A stretch of 64,000 nucleotides of DNA from Thermococcus litoralis DSM 5473 (GTDB lineage Archaea > Methanobacteriota_B > Thermococci > Thermococcales > Thermococcaceae): positions 181,994 through 245,993 of the forward strand of contig NC_022084.1 in assembly GCF_000246985.2 (NCBI RefSeq). Reading direction: 5' to 3'. Each line of letters opens with the position of its first letter. The first letter of the stretch is position 1. The translations under genes were made by a program, and so were the position numbers. Below the pieces are notes generated by a model that was not told where the DNA came from, ran no database searches, and worked only from the letters and a program-made list of their open reading frames with translations. This document shows positions 562-7,240 of this stretch, one piece after another.

Positions 562-1388
562 TTAGTGGACAAATTTGACCTCTTTTCCTACGTATAAAGG
601 TTCTACTTTACTTCCAAAAGCAGACATAAAGCTGCAAATCCCATCAAATCCTGTGCAGTGCCCTGGATAAAGTTTTTCAACCCCAAGGGCGCTAATGCCT
701 TTAATGGCATCTTCCAAAATATTTCTCTTGGCTCCAGTTAGATGAAATCCACCCACCAGAGCAAAAATCGGCTTATTCATAAGTTTTATTGAGTGCCTCA
801 CTATGTTCAAAATTCCACTATGGCCACAGCCAGTTATAACGACCATTTTGCCTCCAAGCTCAACGAGCAGTGACATGTCGTCTTTTAGAGGGTCTTTTAT
901 CAGCTTTCTCCCATCCACGACATGGCCAACTGATCTATCCCAAGTCGTTCTCTCTATCTCACCGCTTGTGTATACCCCATCAAAAATCTTAACTGGTTTT
1001 TCCTTTAGTATAAAGTTGGCTCCGAGTTTTTCTAGATGCTCCTGTGAAAATGGAATTCCAATTTTCCTGCGCTTGGGTTTTAGAGCCACCCTTCTTAAAA
1101 ATATATCGGGGTGAGCATAAACCACTATGGAGTCTTTTCTCGCTGTTAAAAACTTTTCAAGCCCCCCAGTATGGTCGTAGTGACCGTGAGTAATGAATAC
1201 TGCATCAATCTCGTTGGGAGATATATTGAGCGCTTCCATATTGTGAAGCAAAATCGTGCCATCCGTACCTGCATCCACCAAAATCTTCCTCCCATTGTGC
1301 TCCACAAAAAGAGAAAAGCCATGGGCCCCGAGAAGGCCCTTTTAAACCCTGCATGATTTTCAAATAGCACTACCATCCTCATATTCAT
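562..1388 (-). pseudogene. MBL-fold metallohydrolase (COG1237-like), single-base frameshift
   Basis: Two overlapping frames make one protein of about 275 residues. The 5' part starts at ATG 1388, overlaps the stop of the upstream gene (ATGA), and reads MVVLFENHAGFKR. The 3' part reads GLLGAHGFSLFVEHNGRK and continues to the stop at 562. The switch lies near 1335-1341 in an AAAAGGGCC run, where adding one base restores a single frame. The metal-binding THGHYDHTGGL motif (about residues 65-75) and GCGHSG are intact. The family includes the methanogen protein annotated as dihydropterin-methyl-ribofuranosylaminobenzene-phosphate synthase, but the reaction here is unproven. The lesion could be a homopolymer sequencing error. 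It appears co-transcribed with the unknown gene upstream. Confidence 0.8.
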
Positions 1389-2293
1389 CCCTCAAAGGGG
1401 AGCTTGCCAAAATCCACTTCCAGTGTTTGGGTTGTCCTCCATACAAATGCTCCTTCTCCTTTAAGAACATGCTTTCTCATATCTCCTTGAGGCACTCCAT
1501 TAGCTTCATAAATCATGCTCTGCAGATCTGGATCGTTGTAAAGAACTAGCGTTGGTCCCGGTATGTTAAGGAGATTTTCCGCAACGTATCTGGAGCCTAA
1601 TACTGTAACCCTCCCCCTCATGGGTTGAGTCAATAGAGGAATGGCTGCACTTCCGGGGGTTGTGTAGAAAAGAACCGCCGCATCATCGATTCCTATTAAA
1701 GTGCTCCTTCTATCTTTAACAGCCGCCGCAAGGATTAGAAACGCCATTCCCACGGTACTTATGCTGTAAGTTTTTCCAAAGTCAACCAAAATGCTCTTGC
1801 CGAGCTTGGGAACTTCTCCCTCAAAAAAGGTCTCATCGAGGGAAGTGTAAACTTCTCTTATAACCTCTCCGTACTGTTCCTTTGACTTGGCTGCATCCGC
1901 TACACTTTTAACTTTGCCCCCAAGAATATCGGCATAGAGTTTATCGGTAAGAGAGCGATCCAATCCGTATATGGTCTGAATTATCGTTGATGCGGTGTAA
2001 AAGTCCTTCAAGAGACCTTTTTTAACCATCTTTATAGGATCAAGGCCTGTAGGCTTATTGTCCTCCATTTCTATTATAGTGTCGAATTTCTCCTTAGGAT
2101 ACTTTCCTCTTGTGTCAAAGAAAATCAGCCCGTATTCCTTTTCGAGAAATTGGTCTCCAATGTAATCTATAACTCTCGTGGGGTCATCATCGATGCCAAA
2201 AACCTTTAGAGTTCTGCCGTGGTAAACCGGATCGTAGTATATCTCCTTTCCTTCGTACTCCAAAATCTTTATGGCAAGTTTGCTGTACTTCAT
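1385..2293 (-). CDS. conserved protein of unknown function
   Basis: 302 residues from ATG 2293, chosen because GGTGAACTCT precedes it; the frame also extends to a TTG twelve bases upstream. I do not recognise a family. There is no P-loop, signal peptide or membrane segment. Visible features are an acidic FGIDDDPTR segment near the N-terminus, LIFFDTRGKYP, and a hydrophobic stretch near residue 185 (VGMAFLILAAAV) followed by IGIDDAAVLF. The alternating beta/alpha pattern and the late DDAA motif vaguely recall ATPases of the HerA/VirB4 type lacking a Walker A, but that is only an impression. It overlaps the MBL-fold gene by four bases (ATGA), so the two are translationally coupled. Confidence 0.7.
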   Translation of the reverse strand: MKYSKLAIKILEYEGKEIYYDPVYHGRTLKVFGIDDDPTRVIDYIGDQFLEKEYGLIFFDTRGKYPKEKFDTIIEMEDNKPTGLDPIKMVKKGLLKDFYTASTIIQTIYGLDRSLTDKLYADILGGKVKSVADAAKSKEQYGEVIREVYTSLDETFFEGEVPKLGKSILVDFGKTYSISTVGMAFLILAAAVKDRRSTLIGIDDAAVLFYTTPGSAAIPLLTQPMRGRVTVLGSRYVAENLLNIPGPTLVLYNDPDLQSMIYEANGVPQGDMRKHVLKGEGAFVWRTTQTLEVDFGKLPFEG

Positions 2294-2355
2294 AGAGTTC
2301 ACCAAAAAGAATAGGGGGAATAAGTATAAACGGCTTTCCCTTAGAAGTTAAAGGA

Positions 2356-2766
2356 TTACCATCCCCCTTGTCTTCTGCCTCCAAAGCCTCTTACATGACC
2401 CGTTCCACCTCCTTTTGACCTAAATAAAGCCTGAGTTAGCTCCCCTCTCAGAAAAGCCCTTACTGCTTCTTCCACCCTCATTGTGGGGAGAGCCGAGACG
2501 AACTTTATACCTGAAGCTTCAAGTACTTGGGCAGAATTCGGCCCAAATTGCCCAGCTATAACAACATCTACCCCTTCGTTTATGCAAAACTGAGCTGCTT
2601 GAACTCCAGCACCTCTAGGAGCGCTTGCACCCGGATTGGGAACCACTCTAACATTCTTTATCTCCCCACCTTCAATATCAACTATCGTAAAGGTCGGTGT
2701 TCTCCCAAAGTGCTGATTGACAAAATCATCTAAACCTCCGTTTACAGTTGCAACTGCTATCCTCAT
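2356..2766 (-). CDS. NifX/dinitrogenase iron-molybdenum cofactor-like protein
   Basis: 136 residues with the usual NifX-domain opening MRIAVATVNGGLDDFVNQHFGR, then FTIVDIEGGEI, GAGVQAAQFCINEGVDVVIAGQFGPNS and a Gly/Arg-rich tail (GGTGHVRGFGGRRQGGW). These small proteins bind iron-sulfur clusters or Fe-S cofactor precursors in other organisms; this lineage has no nitrogenase, so a role in Fe-S handling is an inference. The frame is open upstream to 2922, but a strong GGAGGTGG site just before ATG 2766 and the family length of about 110-140 residues fix this start. Its partner at 3062-3619 has the same fold and tail type. Confidence 0.85.
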   Translation of the reverse strand: MRIAVATVNGGLDDFVNQHFGRTPTFTIVDIEGGEIKNVRVVPNPGASAPRGAGVQAAQFCINEGVDVVIAGQFGPNSAQVLEASGIKFVSALPTMRVEEAVRAFLRGELTQALFRSKGGGTGHVRGFGGRRQGGW

Positions 2767-3030
2767 CCTACCACCTCCAGGTAAATTAGGAAAGCCGAAT
2801 TTAAAAATTTTGCATAAGATCAAAAAAATTCTGCCCAGCCTTGGCCTCAAAAGACCTCTAACGATAAAAATAACCAAAACGCCCAATGCATAGATTAATG
2901 CCACTAGGAAGAGCTTAGCCAAGAGTTATAACATCCCAATTAGAAGAAACACGTTTAAGACCCTATAAAAGCTTCCAAAATGCCAACTTAACAAATTTCT
3001 TCGATAGTTTCTTCCAAATCCGCGTGCCAT
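2767..3030 (-). other. possible small membrane-protein gene interrupted by an in-frame stop
   Basis: ATG 3030 opens a 34-codon frame beginning MARGFGRNYRRNLLSWHFGSF and ending at TAA (2928-2926). The same frame then continues with a strongly hydrophobic stretch (LFLVALIYALGVLVIFIV) and a basic segment to 2767, running directly into the NifX-like gene. The Arg/Gly start resembles the Arg/Gly tails of the two flanking NifX-like proteins. Either the 34-residue peptide is a real small gene, or a membrane protein of about 85 residues was broken by a nonsense change. No convincing Shine-Dalgarno site precedes 3030. Low confidence. Confidence 0.3.
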
Positions 3031-3061
3031 TCTATGGCTCCCAAAATTTAAAAGAAAGAGT

Positions 3062-3619
3062 TCACCACCAGCCAAAATACCTAGAAAGCCAGTTTCTTCT
3101 ATTTGGTATTCCTGTCCAAGGGCAATAACCTAATTTTGCCCCCCAACCTCTTCCTCTGCCCCATCCACGTCCAAATCCTTTGCCAAAGCCACGGCCTCTT
3201 CCTCCCCATCCATAATCATAGGGTAGATAAGCTGGGGCTGGATTTGCCGGAACTGCTGGAAGATAAGTTTGTTGTGCTGTTTGCTGCATTCCCTCTTTAA
3301 TTACCTTTTCAACAGCTTCCTTAATGGGAGTTCCAGCAGGAAAGAGGTAATAAGTTATTCCTGCAGCTTGGAGGGCTCCCATGACATTGGGGCCTATTTG
3401 TGGGGCGATTATTGTATCCACTCCTTCATTTATCAACGTCTGCACGGCTATTGGACCTGCCCCACCACCAGCGTATGCTGCTTGGTTTTGAATCACCTTT
3501 ATGCTCTTTATCTCCCCATTTTCTACATCAACTACTGTGAAAACTGGTGCCCTTGCGAATACAGGAGCAATTTTGTCTTCCAATCCTCCACCATTTGCAC
3601 TCGGTACTGCAATCTTCAT
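3062..3619 (-). CDS. NifX-like protein with Gly/Arg-rich C-terminal extension
   Basis: 185 residues. Residues 1-110 form a NifX/NifB-C-type domain (MKIAVPSANGGGLEDKIAPVFARAPVFTVVDVENGEI, then INEGVDTIIAPQIGPN). The remainder is a low-complexity tail: a Gln/Ala/Pro linker, then repeated GRGFGKGFGRGWGRGRGWG, ending in aromatic YFGWW. ATG 3619 was chosen over GTG 3628 because of the GGAGGTGAGG site. The domain is known to bind Fe-S or cofactor precursors; the RG/W tail suggests binding to another macromolecule or metal, which is inference. A TATA-like CTTTTAAG and the GCATATGC motif lie just upstream, shared with the divergent ATPase gene region. Confidence 0.85.
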   Translation of the reverse strand: MKIAVPSANGGGLEDKIAPVFARAPVFTVVDVENGEIKSIKVIQNQAAYAGGGAGPIAVQTLINEGVDTIIAPQIGPNVMGALQAAGITYYLFPAGTPIKEAVEKVIKEGMQQTAQQTYLPAVPANPAPAYLPYDYGWGGRGRGFGKGFGRGWGRGRGWGAKLGYCPWTGIPNRRNWLSRYFGWW

Positions 3620-3643
3620 GTTCCTCACCTCCTACTATTATGA

Positions 3644-3666
3644 GCATATGCACAAAAACTTAAAAG
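3644..3666. promoter_or_regulatory. GCATATGCACAAAA-type motif upstream of NifX-like gene
   Basis: Plus-strand GCATATGCACAAAAACTTAA and the bases after it. Read on the minus strand this gives the TATA-like CTTTTAAG followed by TTTTTGTGCATATGC, 25-47 bases before the NifX-like start at 3619. The palindromic GCATATGC core and the attached ACAAAA are repeated almost exactly at 3856-3878, and in part at 7183-7200. Confidence 0.5.
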
Positions 3667-3714
3667 TCTTTCGGTTAGCCTAATTGGGAGATTGAGCAGC
3701 CAATAACTATGTTT

Positions 3715-3838
3715 TTATTTCAGATTTCTTTTCTTAATTTCCTCTAAGAGTTCTTCAAAGTTTTCAACAATAATTTTGGCTCATTCTAAATTCCTTTAGG
3801 GCATCTTCCATGCCGAAAACTACTTTTAGGCACTTCAT
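3715..3838 (-). pseudogene. tiny gene (~40 residues) with a frameshift
   Basis: ATG 3838 follows GGTGGTAAAAA and encodes MKCLKVVFGMEDALKEFRM, then runs into a stop. Shifting frame by one base at about 3779-3782 continues as AKIIVENFEELLEEIKKRNLK and stops at 3715. Joined, the product is about 40 residues, beta-alpha-beta-like, with a helical acidic end. A promoter-like CTTAAAAGTTTTGTGCATATGC lies directly upstream in the same arrangement as at the NifX-like gene, which is the main reason to think this was a real gene. Function unknown; it could be a sequencing error. Confidence 0.4.
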
Positions 3839-3855
3839 TTTTTACCACCAATATA

Positions 3856-3878
3856 GCATATGCACAAAACTTTTAAGG
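3856..3878. promoter_or_regulatory. second GCATATGCACAAAA motif, between divergent genes
   Basis: GCATATGCACAAAACTTTTA lies between the tiny minus-strand gene (start 3838) and the plus-strand ATPase gene (start 3910). For the plus gene the palindromic GCATATGC lies upstream of the TATA-like CTTTTAAGG. For the minus gene it lies downstream of the TATA element. This placement would suit an operator controlling both directions. Confidence 0.5.
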
Positions 3879-3909
3879 TTTTAGGTTTCCTAACTGTGGA
3901 GGTGAGGTA

Positions 3910-4770
3910 ATGCAGATAGCAGTGAGCGGAGGTAAGGGAGGAACAGGAAAATCAACTGTAGCCATTAACCTTGCAATAGCCTTACGGAAGTATTTCGACT
4001 TAGCTCTGGCAGATTTAGATGTCGAGGCACCAAACGATCATATTCTCCTTGGAGTTGAGTTGCAGAATGAGGAACCCGTTCATATGTTCATGCCGCGCTT
4101 TGATTATTCGAAGTGCATAAAATGCAGAAAATGTGCGGAAGTTTGTGAAGAAAACGCAATAATCACAATGAGAGATGGAACACCGTTCTTAATGCCCACC
4201 TTGTGCTCTGGGTGCAGGGCTTGTGAGATAGTCTGCCCAGTTACGGGAGCAATATTGGAAGGAGAGAAGCTTATGGGACACACCTACCTCACCGAGACAC
4301 CTTATCAGTTCCATTTGGTTACCGGAAAACTGCTCGAAGGAGAAGAGCGGGCAATGCCTATTGTAACCGCAGCAAAAAAGAGGGCGAAAACCCTTAACAA
4401 AGAGCTTTTGCTAGTGGACACAGCAGCAGGAACAAGCAACACTGTTTCCAAGGCATTGGAAGATTCAAAGCTTCTCATAGCAGTTACAGAGCCTACTCCG
4501 TTGGGTCTTCATGACTTGACCCTTATCCTTGAGCTCGCCAAATTAATGGGCATAGAGGCTTGGATTGTTGTCAATAAGGCTGATATTGGAGAGAAAAAGA
4601 GAGTAGAAGAGATAGTGCAGAAATACAACGCCGAGATAATTGGGGAAATCCCATACAGCGAAGCTATTATCCAGAGCTATGTTAGGGGAGAACCTATAGT
4701 CCTAACCGATAAAAAGGAAGCTAAAATCTTCAAAGACCTTGCCGAAAGGGTAGCCAGTTATTTGGGGTGA
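3910..4770 (+). CDS. MinD-superfamily ATPase with inserted ferredoxin domain
   Basis: 286 residues. The deviant Walker A GGKGGTGKST (residues ~7-16) marks the MinD/Mrp/NBP35 P-loop class. Between about residues 60 and 105 is a bacterial-type 2x[4Fe-4S] ferredoxin insert: CIKCRKCAEVC and CSGCRACEIVCP. Later motifs include LLVDTAAGTSN and VVNKADIG. This is the COG1149 architecture. Members are thought to act in Fe-S cluster or metallocofactor assembly, unproven here. The start follows GGAGGTGAGGTA. It is followed after five bases by a paralogue, and both sit beside NifX-like and radical SAM genes, which supports an Fe-S role. The upstream region carries the shared GCATATGC motif. Confidence 0.9.
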   Translation: MQIAVSGGKGGTGKSTVAINLAIALRKYFDLALADLDVEAPNDHILLGVELQNEEPVHMFMPRFDYSKCIKCRKCAEVCEENAIITMRDGTPFLMPTLCSGCRACEIVCPVTGAILEGEKLMGHTYLTETPYQFHLVTGKLLEGEERAMPIVTAAKKRAKTLNKELLLVDTAAGTSNTVSKALEDSKLLIAVTEPTPLGLHDLTLILELAKLMGIEAWIVVNKADIGEKKRVEEIVQKYNAEIIGEIPYSEAIIQSYVRGEPIVLTDKKEAKIFKDLAERVASYLG

Positions 4771-4775
4771 TTAAA

Positions 4776-5663
4776 ATGCAGATCGCGATAGCGAGTGGAA
4801 AGGGTGGAGTAGGAAAATCGAGCGTAGCTGCTTCACTCATATACCTCCTCAAAGATGAATATTCACTAATAGCAGTTGATGCTGATGCCGACGCTCCAAA
4901 CCTCGACCTGCTCTTTGGGGTTGAAATGTGGGAAGAGGAAAAAGAGCTCATAGGTGCAAAAGTGGCAAAGATAAACACCAGCACCTGCATAAGGTGCGGT
5001 ATATGCGCTGAAAGATGCCCCTATGACTGCATAAAGATTGTTGATGGAAATTACGTGGTTAATGAGCTAACTTGTGAAGGTTGTGGAGTTTGCAAGCTCG
5101 TATGTCCTGTGGAAGGGGTAATCACTTTAGAGGAAGTACGTTCAGGCATAGTTAGGAAAACAACAACCAAATACGGCTTCCCACTAATTTCAGCCCAGCT
5201 CGACGTGGGAAGGCCAAACAGCGGAAAGCTCGTTACGGAGGAAAAAGAGTGGGCTAAAAGGATCATGAAGGAAAAAGGAATAGAACACATGATAGTTGAT
5301 TCGGCAGCCGGAATAGGATGCCAAGTGATAGCAAGCCTCGGAGGGGCGGATGTAGCGATCCTTGTGGCAGAGCCAACTCCCGCTTCGCTAAGTGACGTGA
5401 AGAGGGTTTACAAGGTTGTCCAGCACTTCAGAGAACCAGCATACCTTATAATAAACAAAGCTGATCTGAATCCAAGCTTTAAGGGACTTTATGAATTCGC
5501 CGAGGAGGAAGGCATACCAATAATTGGTGAGATACCGTACGATAGAGCAATCCCAAAAAGCATGGTAATGCTTAAGCCGGTAGTTGAGGCATTTCCGGAT
5601 TCAAAAGCCTCTATAGCGCTCAAAGAAATAGCAGAAGTCGTTAAAGAGGAGATTTTAGAGTAG
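4776..5663 (+). CDS. MinD-superfamily ATPase with inserted ferredoxin domain, paralogue 2
   Basis: 295 residues. The Walker A-like SGKGGVGKSS (~7-16) is followed by DADADAPN and an inserted 2x[4Fe-4S] unit (CIRCGICAERCPYDC and CEGCGVCKLVCPVEG). VDSAAGIGCQV and LIINKADL complete the nucleotide-binding site. ATG 4776 was preferred over GTG 4767 because GGGGTGATTAAA precedes it; the GTG overlaps the upstream stop. The tandem pair probably forms a heterodimer, as Mrp-class ATPases dimerise through the P-loop (family knowledge plus inference). It shares the operon with the preceding ATPase. Confidence 0.9.
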   Translation: MQIAIASGKGGVGKSSVAASLIYLLKDEYSLIAVDADADAPNLDLLFGVEMWEEEKELIGAKVAKINTSTCIRCGICAERCPYDCIKIVDGNYVVNELTCEGCGVCKLVCPVEGVITLEEVRSGIVRKTTTKYGFPLISAQLDVGRPNSGKLVTEEKEWAKRIMKEKGIEHMIVDSAAGIGCQVIASLGGADVAILVAEPTPASLSDVKRVYKVVQHFREPAYLIINKADLNPSFKGLYEFAEEEGIPIIGEIPYDRAIPKSMVMLKPVVEAFPDSKASIALKEIAEVVKEEILE

Positions 5664-5732
5664 CTCTCTTCTCTCTAATCTTTGGGCACTTTCAGAAATC
5701 TTCATTAATGTTGAGTTGTAATGAGGATTAGT

Positions 5733-6830
5733 ATGAGAAAGTGTAAGCTGTGCGGATATAAATCTGAGGAAATTAGCGAATCAATTGGGGTCTGCGTTAA
5801 CTGCTTGCGAGAAAATCCGGAAGAAGCGCTAAAAATATCAAGGGAGTCCCACCGGAAATGGCGTAGGCTCATAGGCTTGCCTCTAGAAGTGCCGAGAGAA
5901 GGCATTCAATGCCTGCTTTGCGTGAACGAATGCAAAATTCCGGAGGGAAGTTCCGGCTACTGCGGGATAATGTGGAACAGGAAAGGAAAGTTAGTTCCCA
6001 TAACTGGAAGCTTTGATAAGGCATATCTCCATTGGTATCTCGATCCTCACCCAACAAACTGTGTCGCAAGACCAGTTTGTCCAGAAAAAGAACATAGGGG
6101 ATTTTACAACCTAGCAGTCTTCTTCGCCGGATGCAACTTAGATTGTCTTTTCTGCCAGAACATAGAGCACAAATACATGATAAAAAACGGGAGCATAGAT
6201 CCCTTTGAAGGGGTTGTAATGAGCTCAAAGGAGCTAGCAGATATAGCAATGAGAAGTAGAGTATCATGTGTGTGCTATTTTGGCGGAGATCCAACGCCTC
6301 ATTCTCCCTATGCAATAAAAGCTTCAAGAGAAATTCTCAAACGAGCCGAGAAAGTTGGAGCAATAAAAAGAATTTGCTGGGAAACGAATGGGCTTGAAAA
6401 TCCAAACATAATGCGGGAAATGGCAAGAATAAGCCTTGAAAGTGGGGGAATAGTCAAGATTGACTGGAAAGCATATAGCCCAAGTATCTACGAAGCTTTA
6501 ACGGGAGTTAACGGAAGGAAAGCCCTTCAGAGAATAAAGGAGAACATAAGGATTATAGTCGCAATGGACGAGAGAAAGGAGCCTCCCCTTTTAGTAGTTA
6601 GTACCCTTGTTGTACCCCATTACATAGATGGGAAAGAGGTTGGTGGAATATCGAGGTACCTTGCTCAGCTGAATCCGGACATACCATACGTTCTCTTGGC
6701 ATTTGCACCGCAGCATCTAATGCACGATGTGCCAACCACCAGTAAGAGACAGATGGAAAGGGCTTACACAATCGCCAGAAGAGAAGGACTAAAACGAGTC
6801 TTCATCGGTAACCTTTGGCTCCTGAGATGA
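5733..6830 (+). CDS. radical SAM protein, PflA/PflX-like (COG1313 type)
   Basis: 365 residues. The N-terminus has zinc-ribbon-like cysteines (CKLCGY, CVNC) and then CLLCVNECKIPEGSSGYCGIM. The radical SAM motif reads AGCNLDCLFCQN (about residues 134-145), the CxxxCxxC that ligates the SAM-binding [4Fe-4S] cluster. FGGDPTPH corresponds to the SAM-binding GGEP motif. The family resembles activating-enzyme-like proteins of unknown target. ATG 5733 follows GAGG; an in-frame ATG at 5721 is possible. It overlaps the convergent DUF134 gene by 42 bases. The Fe-S neighbours suggest maturation of a metalloprotein, which is inference. Confidence 0.85.
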   Translation: MRKCKLCGYKSEEISESIGVCVNCLRENPEEALKISRESHRKWRRLIGLPLEVPREGIQCLLCVNECKIPEGSSGYCGIMWNRKGKLVPITGSFDKAYLHWYLDPHPTNCVARPVCPEKEHRGFYNLAVFFAGCNLDCLFCQNIEHKYMIKNGSIDPFEGVVMSSKELADIAMRSRVSCVCYFGGDPTPHSPYAIKASREILKRAEKVGAIKRICWETNGLENPNIMREMARISLESGGIVKIDWKAYSPSIYEALTGVNGRKALQRIKENIRIIVAMDERKEPPLLVVSTLVVPHYIDGKEVGGISRYLAQLNPDIPYVLLAFAPQHLMHDVPTTSKRQMERAYTIARREGLKRVFIGNLWLLR

Positions 6831-7151
6831 TCTGGGAATTTCATTTCCCTGGGCAAGGATTATTAGCTCTCTCCCCTCAACAAGCATTTGGGCTACCTTT
6901 TTTCTTGCAGAACTTAGAGCCCTCCACACAGTGCCCCTTGAGACGCCCATTCTCTGCCCGGCTTCCTCTTGAGTTAGTCCTTCATAATCCACCAGCCTTA
7001 AGGCCTCAAACTCCTCGTAGGTCATGAAAATCGGAGGCTGTGGAGGGCCAAAAGGTGGCTTAGCTGGATAGAAATGCCTAACCTCGGGGATAAACCCTAT
7101 AAATCGCATTTTTCGTCTTCTTCCTCTTCTCCATCCCATCCCGTGTGGCAT
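6789..7151 (-). CDS. DUF134 helix-turn-helix protein
   Basis: 120 residues. It starts with a basic Arg/Gly stretch (MPHGMGWRRGRRRKMRF), then FIPEVRHFYPAKPP and a sigma-70 region-4-like HTH (MTYEEFEALRLVDYEGLTQEEAGQRMGVSRGTVWRAL). This is the DUF134 family, often encoded beside NifX-like and MinD-type Fe-S genes. ATG 7151 was chosen for the GGTGTTAAA site and family length. It is likely DNA-binding. A motif related to the GCACAAAA element of the neighbouring operons lies in its promoter, so it is a candidate regulator of this locus (inference). Confidence 0.85.
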   Translation of the reverse strand: MPHGMGWRRGRRRKMRFIGFIPEVRHFYPAKPPFGPPQPPIFMTYEEFEALRLVDYEGLTQEEAGQRMGVSRGTVWRALSSARKKVAQMLVEGRELIILAQGNEIPRSSQEPKVTDEDSF

Positions 7152-7182
7152 TTTAACACCTAAACTACAGTTTGAGTTTCCC

Positions 7183-7200
7183 CTTTTTAGGTTTTTGTGC
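7183..7200. promoter_or_regulatory. third copy (partial) of the GCACAAAA motif
   Basis: On the minus strand this reads GCACAAAAACCTAAAAAG, placed before the DUF134 gene in the same order (GCACAAAA, then a TATA-like element) as at 3861-3878 before the ATPase operon. The GCATATGC half is replaced by GC-rich sequence. The hef TATA box lies just to the right. Confidence 0.4.
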
Positions 7201-7240
7201 GGCGGCGTATTTATAAACCTCCTTGCCAAAATATAGATTA

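What the first reader, a model, noticed from the sequence alone, without database searches (positions are those of the whole stretch)
2356..7240. Iron-sulfur assembly-like locus with a shared GCATATGCACAAAA promoter element
Two NifX-like proteins, two ferredoxin-inserted MinD ATPases, a radical SAM protein and a DUF134 HTH protein sit together in an organism lineage without nitrogenase. The element occurs at 3644-3666 and 3856-3878, and in shortened form (GCACAAAAACC) at 7183-7200 before the DUF134 gene. In each case it abuts the TATA box. DUF134 could be the regulator and the locus an uncharacterised metallocofactor pathway.
Basis: partly seen in the sequence, partly recalled or inferred. Interest (0 to 1): 0.6.

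Follow-up and report, generated by a model that had tools for sequence, protein, structure and literature searches.

The report
DUF134-controlled iron-sulfide storage regulon
A short mirror-image DNA switch in front of iron-sulfide storage and carrier genes is shared by heat-loving archaea and unrelated bacteria, and it is most likely read by DUF134, a protein family with no known function until now.

Summary
The element is real, and it is a palindrome, TGTGCATATGCACA. In this 2.2 Mb Thermococcales genome the degenerate form TGNGCATATGCNCA occurs exactly only twice, both times at promoters of this gene family: here (3641-3654) and before a further NifX-like gene. A variant lies at 3853-3866.

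The 3062-3619 gene encodes IssA/SipA, the thioferrate storage protein. In Palaeococcus, published RNA-seq puts IssA, a NifX and both MinD genes among the five most sulfur-induced genes; these carry the element.

The same 14-mer lies directly before DUF134 genes in Micrarchaeum and Fusobacteriales. There, 27 of 27 genomes with the element have DUF134, against 0 of 45 without DUF134. Operator sequence covaries with the DUF134 recognition helix. Some Fusobacteria fuse DUF134 to a NifX domain.

Best reading: DUF134 is the operator-binding regulator, probably a repressor, of an anaerobic iron-sulfide storage and Fe-S carrier regulon in Archaea and Bacteria. DNA binding, direction of control and signal are inferred, not shown.

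The parts
2356..2766 (-). NifX-like protein NifXa (PF02579); start ATG 2766
   Evidence: Pfam Nitro_FeMo-Co 1e-23. In Palaeococcus G002 the syntenic stretch has its own operator just upstream; in the window only a 3-mismatch version at 2812-2825.
3062..3619 (-). IssA/SipA-type iron-sulfide (thioferrate) storage protein (NifXb), 185 aa, start ATG 3619
   Evidence: PF02579; W/G/R-rich tail with the protein's single Cys, as described for P. furiosus IssA (PMC5524996).
3641..3654 (.). Operator copy 1, palindrome TGAGCATATGCACA; between TATA box and expected start of issA
   Evidence: one of only two exact TGNGCATATGCNCA in the genome.
3658..3667 (.). TATA-like box ACTTAAAAGT, near-symmetric, used by issA (minus strand)
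   Evidence: sequence.
3670..3683 (.). Iron-box-like palindrome copy 1, TTCGGTTAGCCTAA
   Evidence: C1:185663-185676.
3717..3838 (-). Remnant of a divergent NifX-like gene (NifXe), intact in many relatives; frame broken and middle missing here
   Evidence: start of protein (MKCLKVVFGMED) and end (IIVENFEELLEEIKKRN) survive.
3853..3866 (.). Operator copy 2, ATAGCATATGCACA; directly upstream of the BRE/TATA of MinD1
   Evidence: 48 of 49 distinct Thermococcales MinD1 promoters keep GCATATGCACA with <=1 mismatch.
3870..3878 (+). TATA-like box CTTTTAAGG of MinD1
   Evidence: sequence and alignment.
3881..3893 (.). Iron-box palindrome copy 2, TTAGGTTTCCTAA, between TATA box and expected start of MinD1
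   Evidence: same box at feoA across the class.
3910..4770 (+). MinD1, MinD/ParA ATPase with inserted two-[4Fe-4S] ferredoxin domain
   Evidence: Pfam CbiA/ParA + Fer4; in 88 of 94 Thermococcales genomes.
4776..5663 (+). MinD2, second such ATPase, same operon
6789..7151 (-). DUF134 (PF02001/UPF0251) HTH protein, proposed operator-binding regulator; recognition helix SRGTVWR
   Evidence: PF02001 5e-26; single copy in nearly every Thermococcales genome; model and fold search.
5721..6830 (+). Radical SAM protein, neighbour; not a core member
   Evidence: next to the MinD pair only in some groups.

Best explanation
The window holds the core of an iron-sulfide storage and Fe-S carrier regulon: IssA (thioferrate storage), other NifX-like proteins and a pair of ferredoxin-containing MinD ATPases. 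The palindrome TGTGCATATGCACA is the operator of DUF134, which binds it as a dimer through a sigma-region-4-like helix-turn-helix. DUF134 most likely represses: it sits over the start region, or against the TFB/TATA site, and is released when sulfide and iron are both plentiful, so that IssA, NifX and MinD proteins are made to store or traffic iron sulfide. The sensor is probably a NifX-type domain, fused to DUF134 in some Fusobacteria and a separate protein in Thermococcales, where DUF134 has no cysteine. At the MinD promoter a second operator, the feoAB-type iron box, adds iron control. SHOWN HERE BY SEQUENCE: the elements, their conservation, targets, co-occurrence with DUF134, and covariation of operator with recognition helix. 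SHOWN BY OTHERS: sulfur induction of these genes in relatives, IssA biochemistry. INFERRED: DNA binding by DUF134, repression rather than activation, the sensing step.
For: (1) Conserved operator at MinD1/IssA/NifX promoters across Thermococcales. (2) Same palindrome directly before DUF134 in Micrarchaeum and Fusobacteriales, close variants before DUF134 in other archaea. (3) Fusobacteriales: 27/27 genomes with the exact 14-mer have DUF134; 0/45 genomes without DUF134 have it. (4) Operator covaries with recognition helix: SR[GA]T with TGTGCN4GCACA 13/16 vs 4/22 (p=1.5e-4); ARxx/SRTT with TTGACN4GTCAA 4/6 vs 2/32 (p=0.003). (5) DUF134 is an HTH, fused to a NifX domain in some Fusobacteria. (6) Four of the five most S0-induced Palaeococcus genes are SipA, a Fe-Mo-cofactor-binding protein and two CobQ/Fe-S genes; G002, of that strain's genome length, has operators before MinD1, IssA and NifXa. 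(7) The second box is the feoA box.
Against: No DNA-binding data. In Thermococcales DUF134 has no operator in its own promoter and is often not beside the target genes. Association tests are not corrected for ancestry. The operator lies upstream of TATA at MinD1 and NifXc, which would also suit an activator. In Hadesarchaea the exact element is rare and one match is an unrelated hairpin. Three of 16 SR[GA]T loci showed no site within 3 kb.
Confidence: 0.7

Rival explanations
1. DUF134 binds the operator but as an activator (or dual regulator): from the site upstream of BRE/TATA it recruits TFB at MinD1 and NifXc when sulfide rises, while repressing from sites inside the promoter.
For: The operator lies just upstream of BRE/TATA at MinD1 and NifXc; TFB-recruiting activators are known in Pyrococcus (PMC5937170, listed, abstract only).
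Against: In Fusobacteriales, Micrarchaeum and at issA the site lies over or near the start region; both site types are S0-induced in Palaeococcus, which needs no dual action.
Confidence: 0.22
2. Another, unlinked transcription factor reads the palindrome and DUF134 is only a frequent neighbour.
For: DUF134 often lies far from the targets in Thermococcales and has no site there; other regulators can bind similar strings (C. difficile Xtr and GCATATGCACCACC, PMC13260099).
Against: The identical 14-mer goes with DUF134 in two domains of life, presence/absence association and helix/operator covariation are not expected of a bystander.
Confidence: 0.12
3. The palindrome is only a conserved core-promoter feature (extended BRE/TATA context) of duplicated promoters, without a specific regulator.
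For: It abuts TATA boxes, and window copy 1 looks like a copy of the whole MinD1 promoter module.
Against: It is palindromic, occurs on either side of the TATA box, is almost absent elsewhere in the genome, and is identical at bacterial promoters, which have no BRE.
Confidence: 0.03
4. Sulfur/iron response of these genes comes from SurR or the iron regulator alone; the palindrome has another role.
For: The iron box is present at MinD1 and beside issA; feoAB is induced with sulfur too.
Against: NifXc and NifXa promoters have the palindrome but no iron box was seen beside them, and SipA induction needs iron rather than iron shortage.
Confidence: 0.1

Closest known systems
IssA / SipA of Pyrococcus furiosus (PF2025), iron-sulfur storage protein (PMC5524996)
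   Same: The 3062-3619 protein has the same two-part build: NifX-type domain plus W/G/R-rich tail holding the only cysteine; orthologues are sulfur-induced in Palaeococcus and Thermococcus.
   Different: No regulator or operator was named for it in the papers read; thioferrate binding not tested for this protein.
[quoted passage not shown]
   Same: Two MinD-type ATPases with two [4Fe-4S] ferredoxin motifs each (Orp3/Orp4) together with NifX-type proteins (Orp8); Mrp-NifX fusions of the MrpORP kind occur under the same operator in Fusobacteriales.
   Different: orp operons are controlled by sigma-54; no MrpORP fusion at this locus; cofactor unknown here.
DUF134 / UPF0251 (PF02001)
   Same: The regulator candidate is a clear member.
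   Different: The family is labelled 'unknown function'; no paper found assigns it a DNA target.
feoAB iron box (DtxR/IdeR-type, from memory)
   Same: Same TTAGGN4CCTAA sequence and similar position as at feoA across the class.
   Different: Binding protein not identified; window copies are slightly degenerate (N3 spacer; TTCGG).
SurR sulfur-response regulator of Pyrococcus
   Same: Also governs sulfur-dependent expression in Thermococcales.
   Different: Its known motif (GTTN3AAC, from memory) is not this element.

Membership tests
DUF134/UPF0251 (PF02001) | Match above Pfam's curated cut-off | tested here: met
   91.6 bits vs cut-off 27.
DUF134/UPF0251 (PF02001) | Sigma-70-region-4-like helix-turn-helix | tested here: met
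   Sigma70_r4 2e-9; model pLDDT >92 over the HTH; best PDB matches are ECF sigma region 4, E 0.04-0.05.
Operator-binding regulator of this element | Binds TGTGCATATGCACA | not testable with these tools
   Indirect only: co-occurrence and helix/operator covariation.
Operator-binding regulator of this element | Operator in its own promoter (autoregulation) | tested here: not met
   Not in Thermococcales; met in Fusobacteriales and Micrarchaeum.
IssA | N-terminal IPR003731/PF02579 domain | tested here: met
   PF02579 4.8e-20.
IssA | Gly/Arg/Trp-rich C-terminal tail with the protein's single Cys | tested here: met
   sequence; definition.
IssA | Binds thioferrate; sulfur-induced | not testable with these tools
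   Known only for relatives.
ORP complex | Pair of MinD-type ATPases each with two [4Fe-4S] motifs | tested here: met
ORP complex | MrpORP fusion protein in the cluster | tested here: not met
   None at this locus; a separate Mrp/NBP35-like gene lies elsewhere.
ORP complex | Sigma-54 control | tested here: not met
   Archaeal TATA promoters here.
feoAB-type iron box | Same sequence as the box at feoA in related genomes | tested here: met
feoAB-type iron box | Bound by an Fe(II)-dependent DtxR-type repressor | not testable with these tools
   none

The most novel reading that the evidence does not exclude
DUF134 is an ancient regulator, shared by Archaea and Bacteria, that senses intracellular iron sulfide through a NifX-type metallocluster domain (fused in some Fusobacteria, separate in archaea) and switches a regulon for iron-sulfide storage and Fe-S carrier ATPases, reading its operators by a simple helix-to-operator code. 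It would be the missing sulfide- and iron-dependent regulator of IssA/SipA.
Probability: 0.45. Interest if true: 0.85.

Novelty: new variant of a known kind. Interest (0 to 1): 0.74.

Why it matters
DUF134 (UPF0251) occurs in Archaea and many anaerobic Bacteria with no assigned function; no paper found here characterises it. If the reading holds, the family gains a DNA target, a regulon and a testable recognition code. It would also supply a candidate regulator for IssA/SipA, the most strongly sulfur-induced gene of this group in Pyrococcus and Palaeococcus, whose induction needs both sulfide and iron. More broadly it suggests that strict anaerobes of both domains share one control circuit for handling iron sulfide.

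Tried and rejected
Third site before DUF134 (7183-7200): rejected; not palindromic, not conserved.

1-mismatch match at C1:1021670: inside a coding sequence, chance. Palindrome half at C1:1480600: near the start of a transporter-type gene, sequence only partly matching, not pursued.

Radical SAM gene as core member: often not near the MinD pair; degraded in G080.

TTAGGN4CCTAA with 1 mismatch genome-wide: not enriched over the reversed control (62 vs 118); only exact or position-conserved sites are informative.

TTGACATATGTCAA in one Clostridia order: few hits (5 of 96 genomes); 3 at DUF134/NifX operons, 2 probably plain -35 boxes.

Hadesarchaea as an independent test: weak; 3 of 27 genomes, two with the operator before a small Gly-rich protein and an Mrp-type ATPase, one an unrelated long hairpin.

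No DUF134 structure in the PDB by sequence. No paper found that characterises DUF134/UPF0251/COG1342. The archaeal DtxR regulon paper (doi 10.1128/JB.02386-14) is not held.
Full report
OBSERVATION. GCATATGCACAAAA is present exactly at 3644-3657 and 3856-3869. In the 2,215,172-base genome these are the only exact copies. Of three 1-mismatch matches, one is inside a gene and two are the two strands of a single perfect palindrome at C1:1392219, in the promoter of another NifX-like gene. The element is therefore a palindrome, TGNGCATATGCNCA.

ANATOMY. Each palindrome, a TATA-like box and a second palindrome, TTAGG-N3/4-CCTAA, form one module. Before MinD1 the order is palindrome (3853-3866), TATA (3870-3878), second palindrome (3881-3893), Shine-Dalgarno, ATG 3910. 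Before the 3062-3619 gene (ATG 3619, minus strand) the same module is read from the other side. Between the two modules lies the remnant of a divergent NifX-like gene that is intact in many relatives.

CONSERVATION IN THERMOCOCCALES. A 14-fixed-base form hits 55 of 94 genomes, with 0 hits for the reversed pattern. Among 49 distinct MinD1 upstream regions, 48 have both GCATATGCACA and the TTAGG box with at most one mismatch, at nearly fixed positions; shuffled sequences reach this in 0.1% and 0.7% of cases. Of 30 loci taken from the pattern hits, most precede MinD1, NifXc, IssA/NifXb or NifXe; three precede a cation-efflux transporter, one an SBF-family transporter, one runs into a contig end.

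THE SECOND PALINDROME IS AN IRON BOX. Exact TTAGGN4CCTAA sites in this genome include feoAB, genes resembling metal ABC and ZIP transporters and two peroxiredoxin-like genes, as well as unrelated genes such as a type III Rubisco-like gene and a prenyltransferase-like gene (names from sequence likeness). The box lies 10-43 bp before feoA across the class, missing only from three internal feoA paralogues and four feoB-only matches. The protein that binds it was not identified; DtxR/IdeR is the likely class (from memory). A near version, TTAGACTAGCCTAA, precedes an Mrp/NBP35-like gene.

THE GENES. The 3062-3619 protein fits the description of IssA (SipA): N-terminal dinitrogenase-cofactor domain, W/G/R-rich tail, one cysteine, in the tail (PMC5524996). 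[quoted passage not shown] The MinD pair resembles Orp3/Orp4 of the Desulfovibrio orange-protein complex, each with two [4Fe-4S] motifs (PMC6345978). NifXc lies beside genes that look like sufC and sufB/D.

PHYSIOLOGY FROM PUBLISHED DATA. In Palaeococcus pacificus grown with elemental sulfur, four of the five most induced genes are SipA (75-fold), a Fe-Mo cofactor-binding protein (20-fold) and two CobQ/Fe-S genes (13- and 11-fold) (PMC6981617; fold values from the log2 figures). Genome G002 has that strain's chromosome length, 1,859,370. In it, operators lie before MinD1, IssA and NifXa. Matching these to the PAP_ gene numbers is by position and annotation, an inference. SipA was detected in Thermococcus onnurineus only in sulfur-grown cells (PMC4463584). 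sipA is induced by sulfide only when iron is sufficient (PMC5524996).

WHO READS THE OPERATOR. Among 74 distant MinD2-type loci from Archaea and Bacteria, 63 have NifX-like genes and 35 a DUF134 gene. The palindrome or close variants sit in the promoter of DUF134 itself in Micrarchaeum, Fusobacterium, Asgard archaea and others. In the Fusobacteriales the exact 14-mer occurs in 27 of 96 genomes with no reversed control hit; about 25 of 33 sites lie directly before DUF134, six before Mrp/NBP35 or NifX genes, two are unclear. All 27 genomes have DUF134; none of the 45 without DUF134 has the site. In redundancy-filtered loci, DUF134 proteins with helix SR[GA]T have TGTGCN4GCACA sites nearby in 13 of 16 cases against 4 of 22 for other helices, while helices beginning AR, or SRTT, go with TTGACN4GTCAA in 4 of 6 against 2 of 32. 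Both classes occur within one bacterial order (L308). DUF134 is single-copy in nearly all Thermococcales and is modelled as a sigma-region-4-like HTH.

MECHANISM. The most likely scheme is repression by a DUF134 dimer. In Fusobacteria and Micrarchaeum the site overlaps the start region. For issA it lies between TATA and the expected start, and for MinD1 it presses against the TFB/TATA site. Co-induction by sulfur then corresponds to release. The DUF134 of this genome has no cysteine, so sensing is probably by a partner; fusion of DUF134 to a NifX-type domain in Fusobacteria points to a NifX-type protein as sensor of iron sulfide. Activation or dual action from the upstream sites remains possible. 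DNA binding itself is inferred.

LIMITS. No wet-lab data for DUF134 were found. Association tests are not corrected for ancestry. The operator is not at the DUF134 promoter in Thermococcales. In Hadesarchaea the exact element is rare and one match is an unrelated hairpin. Genome identities given by length are inferences.

VERDICT.

Noticed in passing
window 3717-3838 (-): Degraded NifX-like gene (NifXe): start and end of the protein survive, the middle is gone; intact and divergent from MinD1 in many relatives.
   Followed up: partly
L096:6041-6721, L277, L281: Fusobacterial proteins in which DUF134 and a NifX-type domain are fused in one 226-aa chain.
   Followed up: partly
L109, L114, L115, L268 (genus g3); L128, L267 (G035): The operator also precedes a cation-efflux (CDF) transporter in several genomes of one genus and an SBF-family transporter in another genome.
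   Followed up: partly
L265:2439 (G000 C1:1719938): Iron-box-like TTAGACTAGCCTAA directly before an Mrp/NBP35-like Fe-S carrier gene; conservation not checked.
   Followed up: no
L241, L242, L239, L243: Exact iron boxes at two peroxiredoxin-like genes, a type III Rubisco-like gene and an endonuclease-IV-like gene.
   Followed up: no
L309, L311: DUF134 proteins with helix SRPSVQL have very long inverted repeats (arms of 17-24 bases) upstream instead of a CATATG palindrome.
   Followed up: no
window 1385-2305 (-): 306-aa protein with no Pfam or NCBIfam match; also next to NifXa in Palaeococcus G002 (L360 12236-13138).
   Followed up: no
L363:1501: Perfect long hairpin containing TGTGCATATGCACA between genes unrelated to this family; probably chance or a terminator.
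   Followed up: no
literature: PMC13260099: A C. difficile XRE regulator (Xtr) was reported to bind GCATATGCACCACC before a 4Fe-4S protein gene; likeness to half of this operator may be coincidence.
   Followed up: no
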